Source of the DNA: Fibrobacter sp. UWB4
GTDB taxonomy: Bacteria; Fibrobacterota; Fibrobacteria; Fibrobacterales; Fibrobacteraceae
Direction: 5' to 3'
Length of the DNA stretch: 64,000 nt
Assembly: GCF_002210345.1 (NCBI RefSeq)
Contig: NZ_MWQI01000003.1
Span: forward strand, 186,001-250,000
The stretch's first letter is position 1. Each line of letters opens with the position of its first letter. The translations under genes were made by a program, and so were the position numbers. The notes under the pieces were generated by a model that was given only the letters and a program-made list of their open reading frames with translations, was not told the origin of the DNA and did not search any database. Below, piece after piece: positions 43,032 through 53,526 of this stretch.

Positions 43032-46000
43032 ATGGATAGAAATACAATGAAGAACAGAATCAAATCCTTAAGATTGTGGGTGTTGAGCTGTGCAATGCTC
43101 ATTGCCGGTGTCCAAAGTGCATCGGCATCCTTGGCTGGGTGCGAGGGAACCGTTTATCTCAAGCTCCCTGAAGGTTGGACGACCGCTTATTCCGTTGCTG
43201 GAGGTCAGTTCATTGGGTTCAAAAAGAGTACGCAATACCCAAGTTGGTATGAAATTTCTTCTGCTTTAATTGGTGGCGCGAATCCGCAAAATGAATTCAA
43301 TATCTCGAAGGCTTTGAATGACTATGGTCAGACCGGTGGCATAACGAGGACTGTAATCGGTTCCAATGTTCAGTTTGGAACTGGAACGGGTTTTACCTGT
43401 AAGGATTTCGGGAAGAATACAAATGAACTTTGGATTCAGCCTGATTTTGACGATCCTACCAAGCCTTATGTCAAAGGAGAACCTCCTGACGTAAAGTATT
43501 TCTATGTGTTCTTGCCGAATAACGAAACTTGGAAGAGCGCCGTGCCGTTGCTTGTTGAAGATGGCAAGGATCACGAAATGAATATCGACCCGGACAACTG
43601 CGGTTGGTATTTCAGGCGCTATGTGGATGAAGCTCTCCCGTCCAGCATTTTTATTCGTCGTGATGATGATGAAGATAAAGCCGATATGATGGGCATGGAT
43701 GGTGATGCTCAAACTGGTGCGGCCGGGGCCCTGACTCCTATTGCGTTGGGTTCTATTTACAAGGCTTTCGAAAAGGATGCTAAGTTCCAAGGTGGTGTTT
43801 TCTTTGTTGCTGATGGTGCAAAAGCCCAAGACAATCCTAGTGATGTGCCCGGCTGGTATGTCGAACGCCCCCCTGTTACGGGAACTTGTAGCTATCCTTT
43901 GGCAGCTTTCATTTACGATACTGATGCTTCGCTCCACGGTGCATTTACCTGTAGCCATTATGAACAGCAGTGTGATGGCAATCCTGATGTTTGTAAGAAC
44001 AACTCCTGCTTCTATAGCACTGCTAAGTATAATGTTGTTCCGAATGCTTCGGAAGTCGTGCCTTGTATTGGCGTGAAAAAGGGCATGGTCGAAGATACGC
44101 TTTACCGTGATGGAAATGGCAAAAAATACATGAAGCTTACCGCTAAAGGTAAGACATGCTTCGGTTCTGATGCCGAAAACGCTTTCAAGGCCATGTTCAA
44201 CTATACGCCGGGCGTGAACGAAAAGTACTGCTTTAACATGACCTTTGAACAGACTCCTGATGGCAAGTACGAATTTGAATCAGATACTTATAGGAGCCCA
44301 GGTGCGACTGCTGTCGGTGGCTTCTACCCTGCGGAAGAACCTCCTCTCGAAATGGGCATGAAAGACCCTACCAAGCCGGTGATGCTCTCGGAACGCCTGC
44401 CTGCAGCCGAAAACAAACGTCGAGCTGAAGGCCCCGTATTCTTCTGCCCTGATTATAACAATTCAAAAACGACGACTCCAGAAGGTCTCCGTACGATTCA
44501 CCCGACTGAGGGTGTTGCTTTGAGCGACTTGATTTGCAGTGGCCCGGGTTGGGAAGGCGGTATTGACTGCGAAGGCCTCTTTGCTGCTGGTGGAGAATTT
44601 AAGGAAACGGAACAAGCTGGTGTTCTAATTCGTAAGAATCTTAAAGTGAGCTTTGAAGGTGACGGCTGGGGTTGGGGATGCCAGCAGATGGCTCCGATCG
44701 GTTGGACGTTCTATACTGAAAACTCTGAAGATTCTGTTGGTGTAATGGCTGTAAAGAATCAGCCGCCTGCTAAGGGGCAATACCGTTGGACTTCTGGTTC
44801 GGATGATTCCAAGGTCCTTACAACGGAAGGCCGTAACCAGCACTTCTGCTTTGAATCTCATGCGACATTCCGTTTCAAAAAGGGACTGAAGTTCAGCTTC
44901 CGTGGAGACGACGATATTTGGGTGTTCATCAACAACAAGCTTGCTGTGGACCTTGGTGGTACCCATCTTGCTGCTCCGGGCTATGTTGATTTGGACAAGT
45001 TTATGGGTAGCTATGCTGTAGTTGGTACTTCTTACCCGATCGATATCTTCTTCTGCGACCGCCGCACTACGATGAGTAACGTCCATATCAAGACGAACAT
45101 GTTCATTGAACAGAAGTCTGGTATTACTCCTAATGAAAGACATGACCGCAAGGACTGGAATACCACTGGTACGAACCACGTGTATCTTTGCTATAATGAA
45201 TCCAGCAATGGATCCTGCGCTGCTGAAGCCGATCCGGATGCTAAGGATATCGAAAAATGTGGTGATGAAATCAAGGATTTGAAAACGAGCTTTGTGCTTA
45301 CGACGGATAAGTCCAATACCGATCCGACGGCTGTGAAAATCACTGCTGAAGAATTTGCTCAGAAACCGGTGCAGTTTGATGGATACATCAATGTTACCAA
45401 TCCTGGCGAACCGACGTTTAACGCAGACTCGTTGCGCAACTACTTGAAGCCGGGTATTTACTACCTTATTGTTACTATTGAAAAGCAGAGCTATCCTCTC
45501 ACGATTACAATCAAGGGTTCTGTCAACGTGGCTAACCGCGATGCCGTCTTTGTTGATGGCAATAACAACAAGAGCCTGGTTTACAAGCATATTTCGAGCA
45601 AGATGGCTTCTACTTTGAAGGACGATGGTACTCCAGACCCGGACCAGATGATTCCGCTCTATATTGCATCTATTACGGATCCTTGTAACAATGTTCCTAC
45701 CTGCACGGATCCTCTTGAAATGTCTGAATCAGGTGATCAGTATTCTTTGAAATCCACAAATCAGAATGTTCTTTTCTATGAAATGAAGAATGGTGTCTTG
45801 AACAGCATTGATCCGGCCGCAAAGCGAACCCCGAGTGCTTCAGGTATCGATACGGTTTACGTTACGATTCCGTTTGACGGTATGACGAAAGCTGTCGAAA
45901 AGGCTGAAATCTCTGTTGTGGGCGGTAACCGCAAGGCTGAACTCTCGTTCTTCGTTCCGAGACTTAAGTTTGTCGCTTCTGCAACGTCGATGGATGAAGT

Positions 46001-47831
46001 CAAGGGCGATAAGGATACTGACAAGCGCTTGAAGGGCACTGCTTATGAATTCTATGTTGTCGCTGTTGATGATCGCGATAGCCTTTGCACCACCTGCTCG
46101 CACATTAAGCTCAAGCAGGGCCAAGGCTCTGATCCTGGCGTTGACATGATTTCCGATGCCGAATTGATTAACGGCCGTGTGACGATTACCATTAGATCTT
46201 CTAAGGTCTACGAAAGAAAGGCTGATGGTTCTGGTACTGCTACATTTGAAATTCGTGGCCCGAGCAAGAACCTCATGGTCGCTACTTACAACAACATGCA
46301 GTTCCAGGAACCGCCGGTTCCGACTCCGCAGTTTGCTGACATCTTCGACGTCTATGGTGCTCCGGTTGGCGAAATGAATATGCCTCTCGAGTACTTCGAC
46401 AAGAATAAGGACTATCTCGACGGTATCGGTGACTCCATTGTCGTCTACTACCATCGTGAATTCAATAAGGACTCTCTCCCGGAAAAGATCGAAATTTCCT
46501 GGAGCACGGATACGACGGTTGTCTTTGACGCTGCTGCAATTGCTGCCGGTTCTGCTTGCGGTGTTGCTAAGGGCGCCTCTGCTGATACCCTCTGCTTGCC
46601 CAGAATTACACTCGGCGGTAAGGATATCAAGCTCTCCAAGAAGGTAAAGACTTCTGGTATGGGCAAGCTCAAGTCCTGGGCTACATACTGCCCGAGACGT
46701 AAGGATGATGGTACTTGCGGTACGACTCCTGTAACTCAGGATTACGATGGCATCATCTACGACCGTATTGCTCCGGTTATTATCTCTGCTAGAGCAATGA
46801 CGGATACTGATGAGGATAAGGCTCAGTTGAAGATCACGTTCTCTGAAGAAGTTCAGAAGACGGCTCAGGGTGTTGGCGAAGGTGATAAGGTGTTCTCCTT
46901 CTATATCAACAACACCAAGACCCCGACATTCCATGAAAGCCTTCCGCTTCTCACGGGTATTGCTTTCCCGCAGATCCTTGGTGAAAACTTGATCTTGACT
47001 TATGACAAGAAGAACGTATTCCCGCAGTCTGGTGACTACATCCACTTTAGAAGCATTGGTGGTGTTGGCCTTGTGCAGGATAGGTCTATGTACGATTCTA
47101 TTCCGGGTGCTGATTCTATTCGTGCTGAAACAAATCACCTGTGGAATACCGCTCCTGGTTTCGATGCTACTGATCGCGTACCGTCTCCGTGGGCACTCGT
47201 CTCTGGTGACGTGAATGCATACATTGTAAGACTTGTCCCGGATGCAAAGGATGGTGTTCCGTCTGATCTCACAGATCCGACTGCACTCCCGATCACGGAA
47301 GTATTCACCTTTGATGCATTCAAGGATGAAAATGACTTCAAGAATGCCATCATCGATAAGAATACCGATTTTGATCCGGAATTCCGTAAGTATGGGTTCT
47401 TCCCGCATGGTTGGTTCGCTAAGGTTGATTTGGGCGCAATGGTTGAATCTAAGGAAGATTCTGTCATCTACCAGCTCGACAAGGTTTATTTCGACTATGA
47501 AATTCAGGTCTTTACGAACCTGGGTTCCCATGTCTTGACGAATCACAAGCGCATCTACTGCGAAGATAACAAGAACTTCAAGGAAAACGGAAAGTACTAC
47601 TATGGTGGTGCGAATGCAAACTGCGTTGAAAACCGTAAGAACTTCTTTATCGTGTGGAACATGAAGGGTGCCAAGAACCGCCTTGTGGGTACTGGTGCTT
47701 ATGTTTCCAAGATCAAGGCTTACGCAAATCTCGGTTCTCGCGGCAAGACATTCAAGTCCAATAAGACTGAAATGTGGGGCGTTCGCCACAACTCCCATAT
47801 CAAGGGTACTATTCCTGAACCGAAAAAGTAG
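43032..47831 (+). CDS. Fibro-slime domain surface adhesin
   Basis: A 1599-residue secreted protein, about 175 kDa. A signal peptide (LWVLSCAMLIAGVQSASA) is followed by a Cys-rich N-terminal half. The fibro-slime/PA14-like core lies at about 535-700 (GWTFYTENSEDSVG, RFKKGLKFSFRGDDDIWVFINNKLAVDLGGTH, VDLDKFMG, IDIFFCDRRTTMSNVHI). Long beta-rich repeats follow, and a FlgD-like segment near the end (IVWNMKGAKNRLVGTGAYVSKIKAY) suits an outer-surface sorting domain. Fibro-slime proteins of F. succinogenes are implicated in cellulose adhesion. Strong, biased codon use suggests abundance. GGAGAG precedes the ATG; a 360-nt AT-rich upstream region with two dyads implies complex control. A terminator follows. 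Confidence 0.9.
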   Translation: MDRNTMKNRIKSLRLWVLSCAMLIAGVQSASASLAGCEGTVYLKLPEGWTTAYSVAGGQFIGFKKSTQYPSWYEISSALIGGANPQNEFNISKALNDYGQTGGITRTVIGSNVQFGTGTGFTCKDFGKNTNELWIQPDFDDPTKPYVKGEPPDVKYFYVFLPNNETWKSAVPLLVEDGKDHEMNIDPDNCGWYFRRYVDEALPSSIFIRRDDDEDKADMMGMDGDAQTGAAGALTPIALGSIYKAFEKDAKFQGGVFFVADGAKAQDNPSDVPGWYVERPPVTGTCSYPLAAFIYDTDASLHGAFTCSHYEQQCDGNPDVCKNNSCFYSTAKYNVVPNASEVVPCIGVKKGMVEDTLYRDGNGKKYMKLTAKGKTCFGSDAENAFKAMFNYTPGVNEKYCFNMTFEQTPDGKYEFESDTYRSPGATAVGGFYPAEEPPLEMGMKDPTKPVMLSERLPAAENKRRAEGPVFFCPDYNNSKTTTPEGLRTIHPTEGVALSDLICSGPGWEGGIDCEGLFAAGGEFKETEQAGVLIRKNLKVSFEGDGWGWGCQQMAPIGWTFYTENSEDSVGVMAVKNQPPAKGQYRWTSGSDDSKVLTTEGRNQHFCFESHATFRFKKGLKFSFRGDDDIWVFINNKLAVDLGGTHLAAPGYVDLDKFMGSYAVVGTSYPIDIFFCDRRTTMSNVHIKTNMFIEQKSGITPNERHDRKDWNTTGTNHVYLCYNESSNGSCAAEADPDAKDIEKCGDEIKDLKTSFVLTTDKSNTDPTAVKITAEEFAQKPVQFDGYINVTNPGEPTFNADSLRNYLKPGIYYLIVTIEKQSYPLTITIKGSVNVANRDAVFVDGNNNKSLVYKHISSKMASTLKDDGTPDPDQMIPLYIASITDPCNNVPTCTDPLEMSESGDQYSLKSTNQNVLFYEMKNGVLNSIDPAAKRTPSASGIDTVYVTIPFDGMTKAVEKAEISVVGGNRKAELSFFVPRLKFVASATSMDEVKGDKDTDKRLKGTAYEFYVVAVDDRDSLCTTCSHIKLKQGQGSDPGVDMISDAELINGRVTITIRSSKVYERKADGSGTATFEIRGPSKNLMVATYNNMQFQEPPVPTPQFADIFDVYGAPVGEMNMPLEYFDKNKDYLDGIGDSIVVYYHREFNKDSLPEKIEISWSTDTTVVFDAAAIAAGSACGVAKGASADTLCLPRITLGGKDIKLSKKVKTSGMGKLKSWATYCPRRKDDGTCGTTPVTQDYDGIIYDRIAPVIISARAMTDTDEDKAQLKITFSEEVQKTAQGVGEGDKVFSFYINNTKTPTFHESLPLLTGIAFPQILGENLILTYDKKNVFPQSGDYIHFRSIGGVGLVQDRSMYDSIPGADSIRAETNHLWNTAPGFDATDRVPSPWALVSGDVNAYIVRLVPDAKDGVPSDLTDPTALPITEVFTFDAFKDENDFKNAIIDKNTDFDPEFRKYGFFPHGWFAKVDLGAMVESKEDSVIYQLDKVYFDYEIQVFTNLGSHVLTNHKRIYCEDNKNFKENGKYYYGGANANCVENRKNFFIVWNMKGAKNRLVGTGAYVSKIKAYANLGSRGKTFKSNKTEMWGVRHNSHIKGTIPEPKK

Positions 47832-48427: not shown

Positions 48428-51400
48428 TTACAGCACACCAAGCATCTGCTTGAGGCTGTGGTCATCGAGCTTGAGCAGGGCGCGTTCCTCGGGGGGCACG
48501 TAAGCCATCTTGCGTTCGCTGTCGGGCCTCTTGGAGCGGTCTCGGAGCACAACGCTCTTGTTTGTGAGAGAATAGAAGAATGGCCCGGTCTTGATGAACT
48601 GCTTCTGGTGTAGCGCCTGCTTGATGGCATCGCTTAATATTGCGTTGATCTTTGCGCTAGTGTGTTCGACATGATGCAGTTCCAGGAGCCTTTGCAGAAG
48701 GAGTTCTCCGTGAATTGGCGATTCGCTATCCACATAGAATTTGAGCTGCTTGATGAGCGTTTCTGTCGGAAGTTCCGCCATTGGTTTGTCGGTTGTGCTT
48801 GCGGGGTGCTTTACGCTGTATGGTTCGACTTTTGCCGTTGCGACATGCTCTGAATCGTCGAGCGGAATGTCTTCTTGCGGTGGTGGTGCGACACTTTGTT
48901 CAATGGCGATTGTTGCGATGAGATTTTCCTTTTCATCGGCATTTGAAATGTTCCAAAGCGGAAGCCACATGTTCAGGACTTTCCAGCCGCGACTTGAAAG
49001 CGCATTCGGTCGTATGTATTCTCGATCTTCAATGGATTCCTTGTAGGGCGAGGTGCTGCAATCGCTCTCGACGACCGCTAGGAACCGCTTGGAGTTGTTG
49101 GCGTCGATGACGACTGGCCCTATAGGAATGTTGCCCGTGGCGATGCTGTCCTTAAAGGCTATCGATTCCTTCGTGAAAATATCCTTAATTTGTGCGTCAA
49201 GAACGGATTCGGCGGCGTTGTTTTGAGGTACTGCAATCTCTGAATTTTTGAGCGAACCGATCCATTCCTGGAACAGGTTGGGCTTGGCGCTTGCAAGTTT
49301 CTCGGCGTCTTCGTTTGTCATGAACAGGCTGAGGCTTTGCTTTGCAAGTGTTGTACAAACTGAAATTTTGCGAATCCCGGAAATGCTTGTGGCGTGATCG
49401 ATATCGGCACATATGAAAATGACGTCACGGTACAAGTCAACGGCTCGCTCTGCGGTCTTGATGTAGAACTTGTTTGTAATGCTTTTTTGCGCAAAGAACT
49501 TTGCTGCGCCTGGATTTTTCACCAGGAGCTTTTGTATCGCATCTTCAATTTCGCTGATGAGTGCCTGGTTGAACACGACAATTCCTAGAGTCTGGCTGGG
49601 ATTTCTTGTCGCATGCTGGACGGCTTTTTCTGCAATTGACGAAATCTTGTCGCGAACGATCTTGAGCGTTTGCGGTTTGCTTGTTGCTAATGCCGGATTT
49701 GGAAATTGCGATATGGCGTTATTGTATATTTTGCTGTTTGCAAAACTGAATAAAGCTGGATCCGCATATTGTGTTGTATAGCCGATGATTCGGGTCGGGA
49801 TTCCCTTGCGGAGTGCCGCCGAAAGCACGTTGTCCTTGAAGAATATCGACTGCGTAGATATTTCCATGTTGCATGCGTCCATTGGGAGCATTTCGAGTGC
49901 GGGTGCGCATGGATTGCCAAATAAGATGGCTTTTTTGGAATTGAAAATTCCAGACATGGCTTCGGCAATCGACATGCAGTCGGCATCCAGAATCAATGCT
50001 GCATCAAACGAATCGAAATCCTGTTCGTAGGTGTTTGCCAATGTAACAACCTGGAGCAGGTCGGGGTTCTTTTCTATAGCCTCATGTGCGATGCGGAAAT
50101 TCGCATTGCTGAATTGATCCAATAGTGTTCGGTACTGCTTGCCTTGCTGCTTTCTGTTTTTTGCAGATGGACTGAAGAGGTCTGGGCAGTCTGCTGTTGC
50201 CGCTTGCATCTGTTGATTTGTCCAGGCGCGGGCGAATGCCATTGCGATATCTTTATTGGCGTTCTTTGTATCTTTTACAAACTGGGCGAGATTTTCACAT
50301 GGCGAATCGCTGATGTTTTCCATGTGTTCACAGAGTTGCAGGTAAATGTCCTGCTTGTTCCAGTGCTTGGACCAGCTTTCTATTTTCCCAATCCACGAGT
50401 CCACATTCTGTGTATCCATGGATTCGCTCAAGTTGAGCGCCTTGCTTATGCTCTGGAGCTTCTTTTGCAGTTTTTCGGCGCTTTCCTGGATGTTGTCGAA
50501 ATTCTCGGCGAACGGCTTGAACAAGTGCCATTTGGCGAGTAGCTGTAGCAGATAATCGTGCTGGTCGCTGTTTTTGATGCGGGCACGGAATACATAGTAA
50601 TGGCGGATTTTTTCGGCCAGATCCTTCCAGTCGGTCTTTTCGTATTTCCAGTCTTTACCGAACAAACGTGCGGCAAGCACGGAGGAATCTTTGTATTTGC
50701 GTCTGTAATCCTGGATTTCAATGAGCTTGTCGATTTGCTCTAGGAGCATGTCGTCCGAGGTGATGCTCTTGGGATCCTTGAAAACACTCAGTAGGAGTCG
50801 CTTGGGTCTGCGATAGTGGTCCGACAGGGCCTTGAGCGCTGAACTTAGGCTCTCGTCAAATTCATTGCGCGCGGCGAGGATGTTTTCGTCAATGGCGTCT
50901 TCTGTAAAGATGTCGGAGCCTTTGCGGCGATAGCTTGACCAGCGGGCGCCTGCATTCGGTAAATCGTTCAGGTCGTCTTGATAGGCGATCCATCCGTTTG
51001 AATGGAGATCCCATTCTTCAAAGCCGGGCATTTCGTTGTCGAAATTTTTCTTAAGGACGTTTGCCAGGGCTATGACGTCTGAAAGTTTTATTCCATCGAG
51101 ATAAAGTTTGGATTTGCCGATGCTTTCGATAAACGGCTTGATGGTTTCGAACAAGCTTGCCGCTTGTTCCAGGTCTTCGCCGATGGAGTTCTTGCGCTCT
51201 TGTGAAACGGCGGGCAGCGTGATTCCCTGGAAAGAATTGTAAATGTCGATGCCGTTTTCGTTGAAGAAAAGATGCGCCATCTGTTCCAGGCTATAGTGCA
51301 TGGACTTGAATTTTTTGTAGCGTACGTCTTCGATATTCTTGAAAAGGCTGCTTGGAAACTTTGTCTTGACGGGCTTTAACTTTGCTATTTCATCAAGTAA

Positions 51401-52501
51401 TTCCGTGAGCCTTGCGCCGCTTGGCTTAAGCGGATTGTTGACCGCATCGTAATACGAGACAAGCTTTGCTCGGGTATCGCAGAGAGTAGTCTTGAGTGTA
51501 TCGCGGTCAGGACCTTGGAATGAGCGGAATGGCGGGTTCCAGGCGTTCTCGAAATTGAATTTGGTGATGGCCCTACGGCATACTACACAGACCTTTTTCT
51601 TTTGCTGGATCAAGTCGGCGGCTATGTTTACAGCGGCTTTGGCCTTCTCCGATCCGGGGAGAGTCTGTATCGCATAGACCGAAGATTTCTCGTGAAGGGC
51701 GTCAATGACAGCCTTGTTTGTCTGTGAATCGGTTATGTAGGGGAAATAGTGGTCTGCTGGGTTGTAAACGTGGTCATAGGGGACATCGTCAAAAAGCGAA
51801 GACTGTGGCAGGAATCCTTCGTTACCAATTGTCGCGATGAAAAAATCGTTGTTTGCGGCTTTGGCTGTTGTCCAGCATTCACTTGTCAGCTTCTTTTTGA
51901 GAAGAATCCTGTTGGTGCTGTAAAACGTGATGCAAAAGCCGTTGCGTGTAAATTTCCAGTCCGCCTTCGATTCAATTTTTTTTTCGAGCGTGTCGAAAAA
52001 CTTTTGGATTCCAAAGGTGCCGTTCTTGACAAAGTCTAAAGCCTTTGGAAACTTGATGTTCTTGTCCAGCGCCGGGAGAGCAATATTTTCGATGGGGGCG
52101 CGAGCCGAAATGGTGACGGAGTCGCTTTCGTCATCGTAATCAAGCGGGATGAGGAGTGCAGGGGCAAGCGATTTTTCGCCCCACTTGATAAATCCTGTGA
52201 CCAGGTACAAGTCCTGATTGCAGAAATCTTCGGTCTTGGTATTGAGGACTTTGCGGAATTTTTCGAGGTCGGCCTTTTGTTTTTCTTCGTCGTATTTGGC
52301 AGTGACAGGGAAAAACTGCGCAAGAGCGCGAGGCTTTGGATCGTTTTGCCAGATATCAAAAAACTGGTCGCCGTTACCTAAAAGCAGCGGGGATTGAAAC
52401 TTGTTTTTTTGAGAAAAGCTAAGTAAGCGGTCTTTGCTATCAAAGGCTGCTGCTGCTTCGCGGATTTTTTCAATGGTTGCGGACATTGACGTTGATGCCA
52501 T
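48428..52501 (-). CDS. DUF4011/DUF3320-like SF1 helicase homolog with degenerate ATPase
   Basis: A 1357-residue intact frame. The N-terminus (FDSKDRLLSFSQKNKF) matches the start of DUF4011 helicases. The P-loop position reads PGSEKA (Gly283, Lys286, Ala287) instead of GTGKS, and the Walker B position reads LILDADC (Asp839-Ala-Asp) instead of DEAS; later helicase motifs are also lost (TTLAKQ for TRAK). Near 1125-1180, PVVID and VVESD (Glu1145, Asp1147) then RGWKVLNMW match the MTES_1575-type nuclease domain, possibly active. The C-terminus (PIHGELLLQRL, VVLRDRSKRP, YVPPEERALL) is DUF3320-like. ATPase activity is unlikely. No Shine-Dalgarno; TATATT is 6 nt before the ATG. Confidence 0.72.
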   Translation of the reverse strand: MASTSMSATIEKIREAAAAFDSKDRLLSFSQKNKFQSPLLLGNGDQFFDIWQNDPKPRALAQFFPVTAKYDEEKQKADLEKFRKVLNTKTEDFCNQDLYLVTGFIKWGEKSLAPALLIPLDYDDESDSVTISARAPIENIALPALDKNIKFPKALDFVKNGTFGIQKFFDTLEKKIESKADWKFTRNGFCITFYSTNRILLKKKLTSECWTTAKAANNDFFIATIGNEGFLPQSSLFDDVPYDHVYNPADHYFPYITDSQTNKAVIDALHEKSSVYAIQTLPGSEKAKAAVNIAADLIQQKKKVCVVCRRAITKFNFENAWNPPFRSFQGPDRDTLKTTLCDTRAKLVSYYDAVNNPLKPSGARLTELLDEIAKLKPVKTKFPSSLFKNIEDVRYKKFKSMHYSLEQMAHLFFNENGIDIYNSFQGITLPAVSQERKNSIGEDLEQAASLFETIKPFIESIGKSKLYLDGIKLSDVIALANVLKKNFDNEMPGFEEWDLHSNGWIAYQDDLNDLPNAGARWSSYRRKGSDIFTEDAIDENILAARNEFDESLSSALKALSDHYRRPKRLLLSVFKDPKSITSDDMLLEQIDKLIEIQDYRRKYKDSSVLAARLFGKDWKYEKTDWKDLAEKIRHYYVFRARIKNSDQHDYLLQLLAKWHLFKPFAENFDNIQESAEKLQKKLQSISKALNLSESMDTQNVDSWIGKIESWSKHWNKQDIYLQLCEHMENISDSPCENLAQFVKDTKNANKDIAMAFARAWTNQQMQAATADCPDLFSPSAKNRKQQGKQYRTLLDQFSNANFRIAHEAIEKNPDLLQVVTLANTYEQDFDSFDAALILDADCMSIAEAMSGIFNSKKAILFGNPCAPALEMLPMDACNMEISTQSIFFKDNVLSAALRKGIPTRIIGYTTQYADPALFSFANSKIYNNAISQFPNPALATSKPQTLKIVRDKISSIAEKAVQHATRNPSQTLGIVVFNQALISEIEDAIQKLLVKNPGAAKFFAQKSITNKFYIKTAERAVDLYRDVIFICADIDHATSISGIRKISVCTTLAKQSLSLFMTNEDAEKLASAKPNLFQEWIGSLKNSEIAVPQNNAAESVLDAQIKDIFTKESIAFKDSIATGNIPIGPVVIDANNSKRFLAVVESDCSTSPYKESIEDREYIRPNALSSRGWKVLNMWLPLWNISNADEKENLIATIAIEQSVAPPPQEDIPLDDSEHVATAKVEPYSVKHPASTTDKPMAELPTETLIKQLKFYVDSESPIHGELLLQRLLELHHVEHTSAKINAILSDAIKQALHQKQFIKTGPFFYSLTNKSVVLRDRSKRPDSERKMAYVPPEERALLKLDDHSLKQMLGVL

Positions 52502-52507
52502 GTCCCG

Positions 52508-52513
52508 AATATA
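52508..52513 (-). promoter_or_regulatory. Putative leaderless -10 element of the helicase-like gene
   Basis: Minus strand TATATT, 6 nt (CGGGAC), ATG at 52501. No Shine-Dalgarno. Confidence 0.55.
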
Positions 52514-52536
52514 AATTTTTTTTAACGAAATGGACG

Positions 52537-53526
52537 CTATAGATGTTCCATAATTATGGATATTGCGTCAATGATGGATCTTGGTGCGTCATTTTCGGTC
52601 AGGTGCGCCTTGTAGCAGACGCGTCCGAAGAGCGTTTCGGGGGAAATGCCGGCTTCTTTGTCCTGGCGCAAGCTGTGGGCGAGTTCGCGCTTGGAAAGCT
52701 TCTTGTTGTTTGCATCCACGATGAGCGGGTGGTGCAGGTAGACGGGGCGTTCTTTGCGGCCTAGTGCTTCCATGAGTGCAATCTGGCGGGCCGTGGAGTT
52801 GCGGATGTCCTCGCCACGGACGATATGCGTGATGCCCTCGTCAATGTCGTCAACGCAGACGGCGAACTGGTAGGTCCATTGGTTGTCGCGGTCGCGGATG
52901 GGAAAATCCCCGCACTGGAGTTTCGGGTTCTCGTGAAAGTCTCCGAGACGTAGGTCGTGCCAGTCGATGAACTTGTTTGGAACGATAAACCGCAAGTTGT
53001 GCGGTGCTGAGTTGCTACTCAAAACTTCACTGGATGGGGCTAAGCCCCAACTCTTTGGCTCGGTTATGCCCATGCGAGCATGGGCGCAACACTCGCCTTT
53101 TGAGTTGTCTTCACTTCGTTCAGGATGACGAATTGCTTCGCTCAGGATGACGAGATGTTTGCATTTTCCCTGATAAATGATTTCTCCGGTTTCGCTTTGC
53201 GGGTTTTCGGCGAGGAGCTGCTTGCGGCTGCAATAGCACGGATAAACGAGCGATTTTGCAACAAGTTTTTGGAGGGCGGCTTCGTAGATCGGTCCGCGGG
53301 CACTTTGTATGCTCTCGGAATCGTACTTGAACCCAAGCCAAGCTAAATCTTCTCGGATGCCTGCGATGTAAGCGGGGCGCGCACGGCTCTGGTCATGGTC
53401 TTCGATTCGCAGATGGACTTTTAAATTCCATTTTTTTGCGGCGGCCCACACATAAAGTGCCGAAAGCAGATGGCCTTCGTGAAGGTAACCCGTGGGGCTA
53501 GGTGCGAATCGAATTTTTCCAGACAT
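52537..53526 (-). CDS. gluQ: Glutamyl-Q tRNA(Asp) synthetase with in-frame repeat insert
   Basis: A 329-residue GluRS-like enzyme that adds Glu to queuosine in tRNA(Asp). It has FAPSPTGYLHEGH (HIGH motif), the zinc site Cys97/Cys99/Tyr118/Cys122, and KKLSKRE (KMSKS-like). The domain ends after about 329 residues without the anticodon-binding domain of GluRS, as expected. Residues of about 125-177, just after Cys122, are encoded by palindromic repeats and break the usual short loop before LRFIVPN, lengthening the protein by about 50 residues without a frameshift. TACATT lies 6 nt before the ATG and there is no Shine-Dalgarno, so it may be leaderless. Confidence 0.85.
   Translation of the reverse strand: MSGKIRFAPSPTGYLHEGHLLSALYVWAAAKKWNLKVHLRIEDHDQSRARPAYIAGIREDLAWLGFKYDSESIQSARGPIYEAALQKLVAKSLVYPCYCSRKQLLAENPQSETGEIIYQGKCKHLVILSEAIRHPERSEDNSKGECCAHARMGITEPKSWGLAPSSEVLSSNSAPHNLRFIVPNKFIDWHDLRLGDFHENPKLQCGDFPIRDRDNQWTYQFAVCVDDIDEGITHIVRGEDIRNSTARQIALMEALGRKERPVYLHHPLIVDANNKKLSKRELAHSLRQDKEAGISPETLFGRVCYKAHLTENDAPRSIIDAISIIMEHL
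52996..53154. repeat. Mosaic palindromic insert in gluQ
   Basis: Contains GGGGCTAAGCCCC, ATGCCCATGC-GA-GCATGGGC, and two GCTCAGGATGACGA-like units, 159 bp = 53 codons, in frame. The first part resembles the element at 18272-18375. Confidence 0.75.

What the first reader, a model, noticed from the sequence alone, without database searches (positions are those of the whole stretch)
48428..52501. Intact 1357-residue pseudo-helicase with possible live nuclease
DUF4011 N-terminus, SF1 helicase body, MTES_1575-type nuclease and DUF3320 C-terminus are all recognisable in order, yet Walker A (PGSEKA), Walker B (DADC) and the Arg finger region are degraded. The frame is open over 4 kb, so the protein is under selection for something other than ATP-driven unwinding. 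Relatives of this family often sit in defence loci; here it stands alone with its own leaderless-type promoter, next to gluQ. It could be a DNA- or RNA-end sensor, a nuclease, or a decoy.
Basis: partly seen in the sequence, partly recalled or inferred. Interest (0 to 1): 0.65.

Follow-up and report, generated by a model that had tools for sequence, protein, structure and literature searches.

The report
Catalytically dead core helicase-nuclease relative
Fibrobacter and several sister genera all carry, at one fixed place in the chromosome, a large protein built like a known anti-phage DNA motor-and-cutter but with both its motor site and its cutting site lost, yet kept under as strong selection as housekeeping genes, so an immune enzyme seems to have become a permanent non-enzyme part of the cell.

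Summary
Window 48428-52501 (minus strand) is an intact 1357-codon frame with DUF4011, SF1 helicase, Vsr-like MTES_1575 and DUF3320 parts in order. It is vertically inherited and constrained: orthologs occur in 78 of 80 Fibrobacter genomes and in six sister genera, single copy, beside gluQ wherever the flanks are held except in one genus, with dN/dS 0.03-0.23, like neighbouring housekeeping genes. In 75 distinct orthologs no canonical ATPase site remains: Walker B DE 0/75, motif VI Arg 0/75, motif V Gln 0/75. Eight intact relatives, including three accessory copies in other Fibrobacter genomes, keep all of these. The 'live nuclease' part is not supported: Glu1145 and Asp1147 are invariant, but the position of Vsr Asp51 is never Asp, and that of His69 is His in only one. 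The predicted fold keeps the SF1 (Upf1-like) core and a Vsr-like domain. Best reading: a double pseudoenzyme domesticated from the ProA/PDC-S37 type of anti-phage helicase-nuclease by the ancestor of about seven genera, acting without catalysis as a binding scaffold, in the manner of RecC. That it is a conserved pseudoenzyme is well supported; ligand and partner are unknown.

The parts
48428..52501 (-). ORF of the pseudo-helicase/pseudo-nuclease, 1357 aa, ATG start
   Evidence: orthologs; dN/dS
51752..52501 (-). DUF4011-containing N-terminal domain (residues 1-250)
   Evidence: Pfam DUF4011 at 66-129, weak in P0001, found in 28/35 orthologs; modelled with high confidence
51638..51661 (-). Degenerate Walker A, residues 281-288 LPGSEKAK (intact relatives: PPGTGKSQ)
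50102..51511 (-). Helical 1B-type insertion in domain 1A (residues 331-800), matches PDC-S37/ProA best
   Evidence: (best stretch about 332-815), secondary structure
49976..49987 (-). Degenerate Walker B, residues 839-842 DADC (intact relatives: DEAS, aligned at 838-841)
49217..49801 (-). SF1 domain 2A (residues 901-1095); motif VI Arg replaced by Leu1052
48872..49216 (-). Vsr-like nuclease-fold domain (residues 1096-1210); Gly1128 in place of the catalytic Asp, Glu1145 and Asp1147 kept
   Evidence: Pfam MTES_1575; Foldseek I-Bth0305I and NGO0050; columns
48431..48871 (-). Linker and DUF3320 winged-helix region plus conserved tail (residues 1211-1357)
   Evidence: Foldseek winged-helix matches, weak
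52502..52536 (-). 35-bp spacer to gluQ holding the conserved TATATT box of a leaderless-type promoter
52537..53526 (-). gluQ (glutamyl-Q tRNA(Asp) synthetase type), conserved upstream neighbour

Best explanation
The gene encodes a double pseudoenzyme. An anti-phage helicase-nuclease of the ProA/PDC-S37 kind (DUF4011 + SF1 Upf1-like helicase + Vsr-like nuclease + DUF3320 winged helix) became fixed beside gluQ in the ancestor of Fibrobacter and about six sister genera, lost the residues of ATP hydrolysis and of Vsr-type cleavage before those genera split, and has been kept since for a non-catalytic role. Shown here: intact conserved frame, purifying selection, fixed place, retained predicted folds, lost catalytic residues in every ortholog. 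Inferred: that it works as a binding scaffold that holds nucleic acid and/or a partner protein through its helical insertion, the Vsr-like fold and the winged helix, without ATP, much as RecC (inactive helicase plus inactive nuclease domains) does inside RecBCD. Partner and ligand are unknown.
For: Orthologs in 78/80 genus genomes (the two lacking are 65 and 71% complete) and 15 genomes of six other genera; carriers form one clade on the TopA tree and the gene tree keeps them as a single clade apart from the intact proteins. Synteny with gluQ. dN/dS 0.03-0.23 for close pairs, no higher than gluQ in most pairs. 75 distinct orthologs: Walker B DE 0/75, motif VI Arg 0/75, motif V Gln 0/75, P-loop Gly285 0/75, nuclease Asp 0/75 (1 Glu), nuclease His 1/75; eight intact relatives keep the ATPase residues and the Asp in 8/8. 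AF2 model pLDDT 87 with Foldseek hits to Senataxin, Aquarius, Dna2, Upf1; Vsr-like hits for the C-terminal part. Conservation is highest in the Vsr-like and C-terminal parts (14-16% of columns against 4-6% elsewhere). RecC precedent: PMC1185551; Vsr fold used for RNA binding without cleavage: FASTKD4, PMC11879112.
Against: No partner, ligand or phenotype is known; the scaffold role is by analogy. The Vsr-like domain is acidic in all orthologs examined (net -5 to -11), which speaks against simple nucleic-acid binding by that domain. Two orthologs of one genus keep a displaced GKT near the P-loop. RecB- and RecC-type genes are present in carriers and non-carriers alike, so it does not replace RecC.
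Confidence: 0.5

Rival explanations
1. The nuclease is still alive: a metal site rebuilt around Glu1145 and Asp1147 (with Asp1133 or Asp1159) cuts DNA or RNA, and the helicase body only positions the substrate.
For: Glu1145 and Asp1147 invariant in 75/75, Asp1133 in 74/75, Asp1159 in 73/75; two ATPase-intact ProA-type relatives also lack the Glu and the His, so the site tolerates variation.
Against: The Asp that is invariant in all eight intact relatives (Vsr Asp51 position) is replaced in 75/75 and the His is absent in 74/75. In the model Asp1133 lies at the hairpin turn, several residues of strand away from the Glu1145/Asp1147 end, so it is badly placed to stand in for the lost Asp (secondary structure).
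Confidence: 0.1
2. It is still a defence protein: an infection sensor or a decoy for phage anti-defence proteins, acting through binding without catalysis.
For: Descent from anti-phage proteins; faster protein divergence (41-46% identity between subclades) than the flanking gluQ and TopA genes.
Against: Fixed chromosomal place, vertical inheritance, no related viral contigs, one weak phage hit and no near-full-length copy on plasmids, no defence genes beside it, low dN/dS without sign of an arms race at gene level.
Confidence: 0.2
3. A cellular role in translation or tRNA modification linked to gluQ.
For: gluQ-pseudoenzyme order conserved in the genus and in five of six other genera.
Against: It has its own conserved promoter box; in L127 gluQ is not next to it, and in G156 gluQ remains while the gene is absent.
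Confidence: 0.08
4. It is a regulator or dominant-negative partner of the intact ProA/PDC-S37 defence protein.
For: Same family; three Fibrobacter genomes hold both.
Against: Intact homologs reach threshold in only 3 of 168 genomes of the phylum searched, while the pseudoenzyme is in nearly all genus genomes; its conservation does not need an intact partner.
Confidence: 0.07

Closest known systems
ProA (NCBIfam NF058533) and PADLOC PDC-S37
   Same: Same domain order and best match of all family models (204 and 356 bits); L042, in another Fibrobacter genome, passes the ProA cut-off at 2043 bits
   Different: Far below the ProA cut-off of 1500 bits, about 550 aa shorter than the ProA model, ATPase and nuclease residues lost, core gene and not accessory
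Hhe (NF042953), DUF4011 anti-phage protein
   Same: DUF4011-SF1-Vsr-DUF3320 relative
   Different: Much weaker match (37-58 bits); Hhe keeps all catalytic motifs
RecC of RecBCD
   Same: Inactivated SF1 helicase domains followed by an inactivated nuclease domain; works like it by inference (PMC1185551)
   Different: Not a family member; nuclease fold is Vsr-like here; no RecB-type partner next to it; Fibrobacter has its own RecB- and RecC-type genes
FASTKD4 / RAP domain proteins
   Same: Vsr-like fold without nuclease activity, used to bind RNA (PMC11879112); T. gondii mitoribosome proteins, probably RAP-type, among the Foldseek hits
   Different: Eukaryotic, no helicase part
DUF4011 core gene at the edge of Pseudomonas aeruginosa cDHS1
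   Same: Another DUF4011 gene fixed in a species (PMC10250203)
   Different: Its catalytic motifs were not examined here; it flanks a defence hotspot

Membership tests
ProA / PDC-S37 anti-phage helicase-nuclease | Score above the curated ProA cut-off (1500 bits) | tested here: not met
   204 bits; true member L042 2043 bits
ProA / PDC-S37 anti-phage helicase-nuclease | Domain order DUF4011-SF1-Vsr-like-DUF3320 | tested here: met
ProA / PDC-S37 anti-phage helicase-nuclease | Intact SF1 ATPase motifs (GPPGTGKS, DEAS, VQGDERD, motif VI Arg) | tested here: not met
   0/75 orthologs keep Walker B DE, motif VI Arg or motif V Gln
ProA / PDC-S37 anti-phage helicase-nuclease | Anti-phage activity | not testable with these tools
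   Needs phage assays
Vsr-like (MTES_1575) nuclease | Vsr-like fold | tested here: met
   Pfam MTES_1575 in 35/35 orthologs; Foldseek 3r3p and 3hrl, probability 0.94-1.00 though E 0.01-0.15
Vsr-like (MTES_1575) nuclease | Asp51- and His69-type active-site residues | tested here: not met
   Asp 0/75, His 1/75; roles of Asp51/His69 from PMC11879112 and PMC1185551
SF1 helicase fold (Upf1-like) | RecA-like 1A/2A core | tested here: met
   AF2 pLDDT 87; Foldseek E from 2e-10 to Aquarius, Senataxin, Dna2, Upf1
RecC | Pfam Exonuc_V_gamma match and RecBCD complex membership | tested here: not met
   P0001 has no Exonuc_V_gamma match; the genome's RecC-type match lies on another contig, C7. Complex membership itself not testable here

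The most novel reading that the evidence does not exclude
An anti-phage helicase-nuclease was stripped of both catalytic activities and recruited once, in the ancestor of about seven genera, into an unknown core cellular complex (a RecC-like non-enzymatic subunit), so that an immune protein became a permanent structural part of chromosome or RNA maintenance.
Probability: 0.3. Interest if true: 0.8.

Novelty: new variant of a known kind. Interest (0 to 1): 0.55.

Why it matters
It would be a clear case of a large bacterial defence enzyme losing both its motor and its nuclease yet being kept across a whole group of genera under housekeeping-like selection. Such a case shows what the non-catalytic parts of this poorly understood DUF4011/DUF3320 family can do, and gives a clean system (one gene, one place, no intact paralog in most strains) to find out. 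It also warns against annotating the protein as an active helicase or counting it as a defence system in automated scans.

Tried and rejected
Solved-structure sequence search: no hits. Literature for ProA, PDC-S37, Hhe, DUF4011: no paper describing these proteins as such was found in the library. RecC replacement: rejected, since RecB/RecC-type genes occur in carriers and non-carriers. Mobile or phage location of the present gene: no related viral contigs, one weak phage hit, no near-full-length plasmid copy. Pseudogene: rejected by dN/dS and open frames. Asp1133 as replacement catalytic Asp: rejected from hairpin geometry in the model's secondary structure. A first TopA tree was spoiled by wrong reading frames for four rows and was redone.

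Full report
Observation. The frame at 48428-52501 lies on the minus strand, starts with ATG and encodes 1357 residues without a stop. P0001 alone matches MTES_1575 (E 1e-5), DUF4011 and DUF3320 below Pfam's cut-offs, but the same domains appear in 35, 28 and 28 of 35 orthologs, and PADLOC PDC-S37 (356 bits) and NCBIfam ProA (204 bits) match along much of the chain. An AlphaFold2 model of residues 1-1200 (pLDDT 87) has Foldseek matches to SF1 helicases of the Upf1 type (Aquarius, Senataxin, Dna2, Upf1; E from 2e-10). TM-scores are low because the query is long and multi-domain. A model of residues 1085-1357 (pLDDT 76) resembles the Vsr-like nucleases I-Bth0305I and NGO0050 (Foldseek probability 0.94-1.00, E 0.01-0.15, so weak on E-value), T. 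gondii mitoribosome proteins that are probably RAP-type, and winged helices.

Conservation. A search with P0001 found an ortholog in each of 37 genus genomes, the one in G014 being cut by a contig end. A profile search over the order found it in 78 of 80 genus genomes and, as strong matches, in 15 genomes of six other genera of the family; the two genus genomes without it are 65 and 71% complete. Four genera (g29, g30, g31, g35) and the sister family f2 lack it; the one match in g31 (G125) is a fragment of an intact relative with GPPGTGKS. On a TopA tree the carriers form one clade (95/99) with one absence inside it, G156. The gene tree keeps all pseudo copies as one clade apart from eight intact proteins (100/100). 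gluQ lies directly upstream on the same strand in the genus and in five of the six other genera; a SPOR-type gene follows on the other strand in most of the loci in which that side is held.

Selection. Nei-Gojobori dN/dS for close pairs within subclades is 0.03-0.23. In pairs compared with their own gluQ, exonuclease and TopA genes the values are of the same size, and lower than gluQ in most. Among 78 genus copies one has an in-frame TAG (G027) and one is split as by a frameshift (G082). This is not decay. At protein level the gene diverges faster (41-46% identity between subclades) than gluQ (57-69%) or TopA (84-88%).

Lost catalysis, ATPase. In 75 distinct orthologs aligned with eight intact relatives (three accessory Fibrobacter copies, Haloferax, Thioclava, Picosynechococcus, Azospirillum and Klebsiella Hhe), the intact proteins keep GPPG[TS]GKS, DEAS, QGDERD and the motif VI Arg in 8/8; the orthologs keep Walker B DE in 0/75, motif VI Arg in 0/75 (Leu 66, His 9), motif V Gln in 0/75 and P-loop Gly285 in 0/75. 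Lys286 survives in 58/75, without the Gly before it, and Ser287 in 2/75. Two orthologs of one deep genus have a GKT displaced by one residue. The positions are not simply free: LDA[DE] is nearly invariant in place of DEAS, so the old ATP site has been remade into a conserved non-catalytic segment.

Lost catalysis, nuclease. In the Vsr-like domain most intact proteins read IDLAI...GIECDGAxYH. The Asp (Vsr Asp51 position) is invariant in all eight but Gly, Gln, Ser, Cys, Glu, Leu or Ala in 75/75 orthologs; the His (Vsr His69 position) is kept in five of eight intact proteins and in 1/75 orthologs. Glu1145 and Asp1147 are invariant. Two true ProA-type relatives themselves lack the Glu and the His, so the Asp is the telling loss. 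Vsr Asp51 and His69 as the active pair are taken from PMC11879112 and PMC1185551. Asp1133, also nearly invariant, sits at the hairpin turn by the model's secondary structure and is badly placed to stand in. MTES_1575 as a Vsr-fold REase and DUF3320 as a winged helix follow PMC3710099.

What it does. The parts most conserved across genera are the Vsr-like domain and the C-terminal winged-helix region (14-16% of columns against 4-6% elsewhere), with conserved tryptophans in the helical insertion. This suggests binding. The acidic net charge of the Vsr-like domain warns against assuming nucleic acid there; a protein partner is as likely. RecC shows that a subunit with inactive helicase and inactive nuclease domains can be kept as a DNA-handling scaffold (PMC1185551); FASTKD4 shows a Vsr fold used without cleavage (PMC11879112). 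RecB- and RecC-type matches exist in carriers and non-carriers, so this is analogy, not replacement. Intact ProA/PDC-S37 proteins reach threshold in only three of 168 phylum genomes searched, so the protein does not depend on an intact partner of its own family.

Expression.

Verdict. Observation confirmed; pseudo-helicase supported; live nuclease not supported; mechanism inferred. It is not a ProA member by cut-off or catalytic motifs, but it descends from that kind of protein and is best described as a double pseudoenzyme with a RecC-like manner of working as the leading hypothesis.

Noticed in passing
window 52996-53157 (minus strand, inside gluQ): An in-frame insertion of about 54 codons in gluQ that alignments to the relatives' GluQ skip; its DNA is a dispersed repeat of about 110 bp with about 40 matches in the own genome, so a repeat element has been accommodated inside a coding gene, as known for Rickettsia palindromic elements (from memory).
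   Followed up: partly
window, 9 of 40 genes: A TAnAwT box about 10-20 nt before the ATG precedes 9 of 40 longer ORFs against 2% of control ATGs: leaderless transcription may be common in this genome.
   Followed up: partly
L041, L042, L043: Three other Fibrobacter genomes carry intact accessory ProA/PDC-S37-type proteins; L042 passes the ProA cut-off (2043 bits).
   Followed up: yes
L032 (G027) and G082:C9:52434-56539: Two MAG copies look broken, one by an in-frame TAG, one by an apparent frameshift; assembly error not excluded.
   Followed up: no
window 43032-47831: A 1599-aa secreted protein that looks like a fibro-slime/PA14-type surface protein (from memory) and lies beyond the SPOR-type gene in most orthologous loci, fast-evolving.
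   Followed up: no
L199 (G156): A genome inside the carrier clade keeps gluQ in a different neighbourhood and lacks the pseudoenzyme: a natural loss, or a gap in the assembly.
   Followed up: partly
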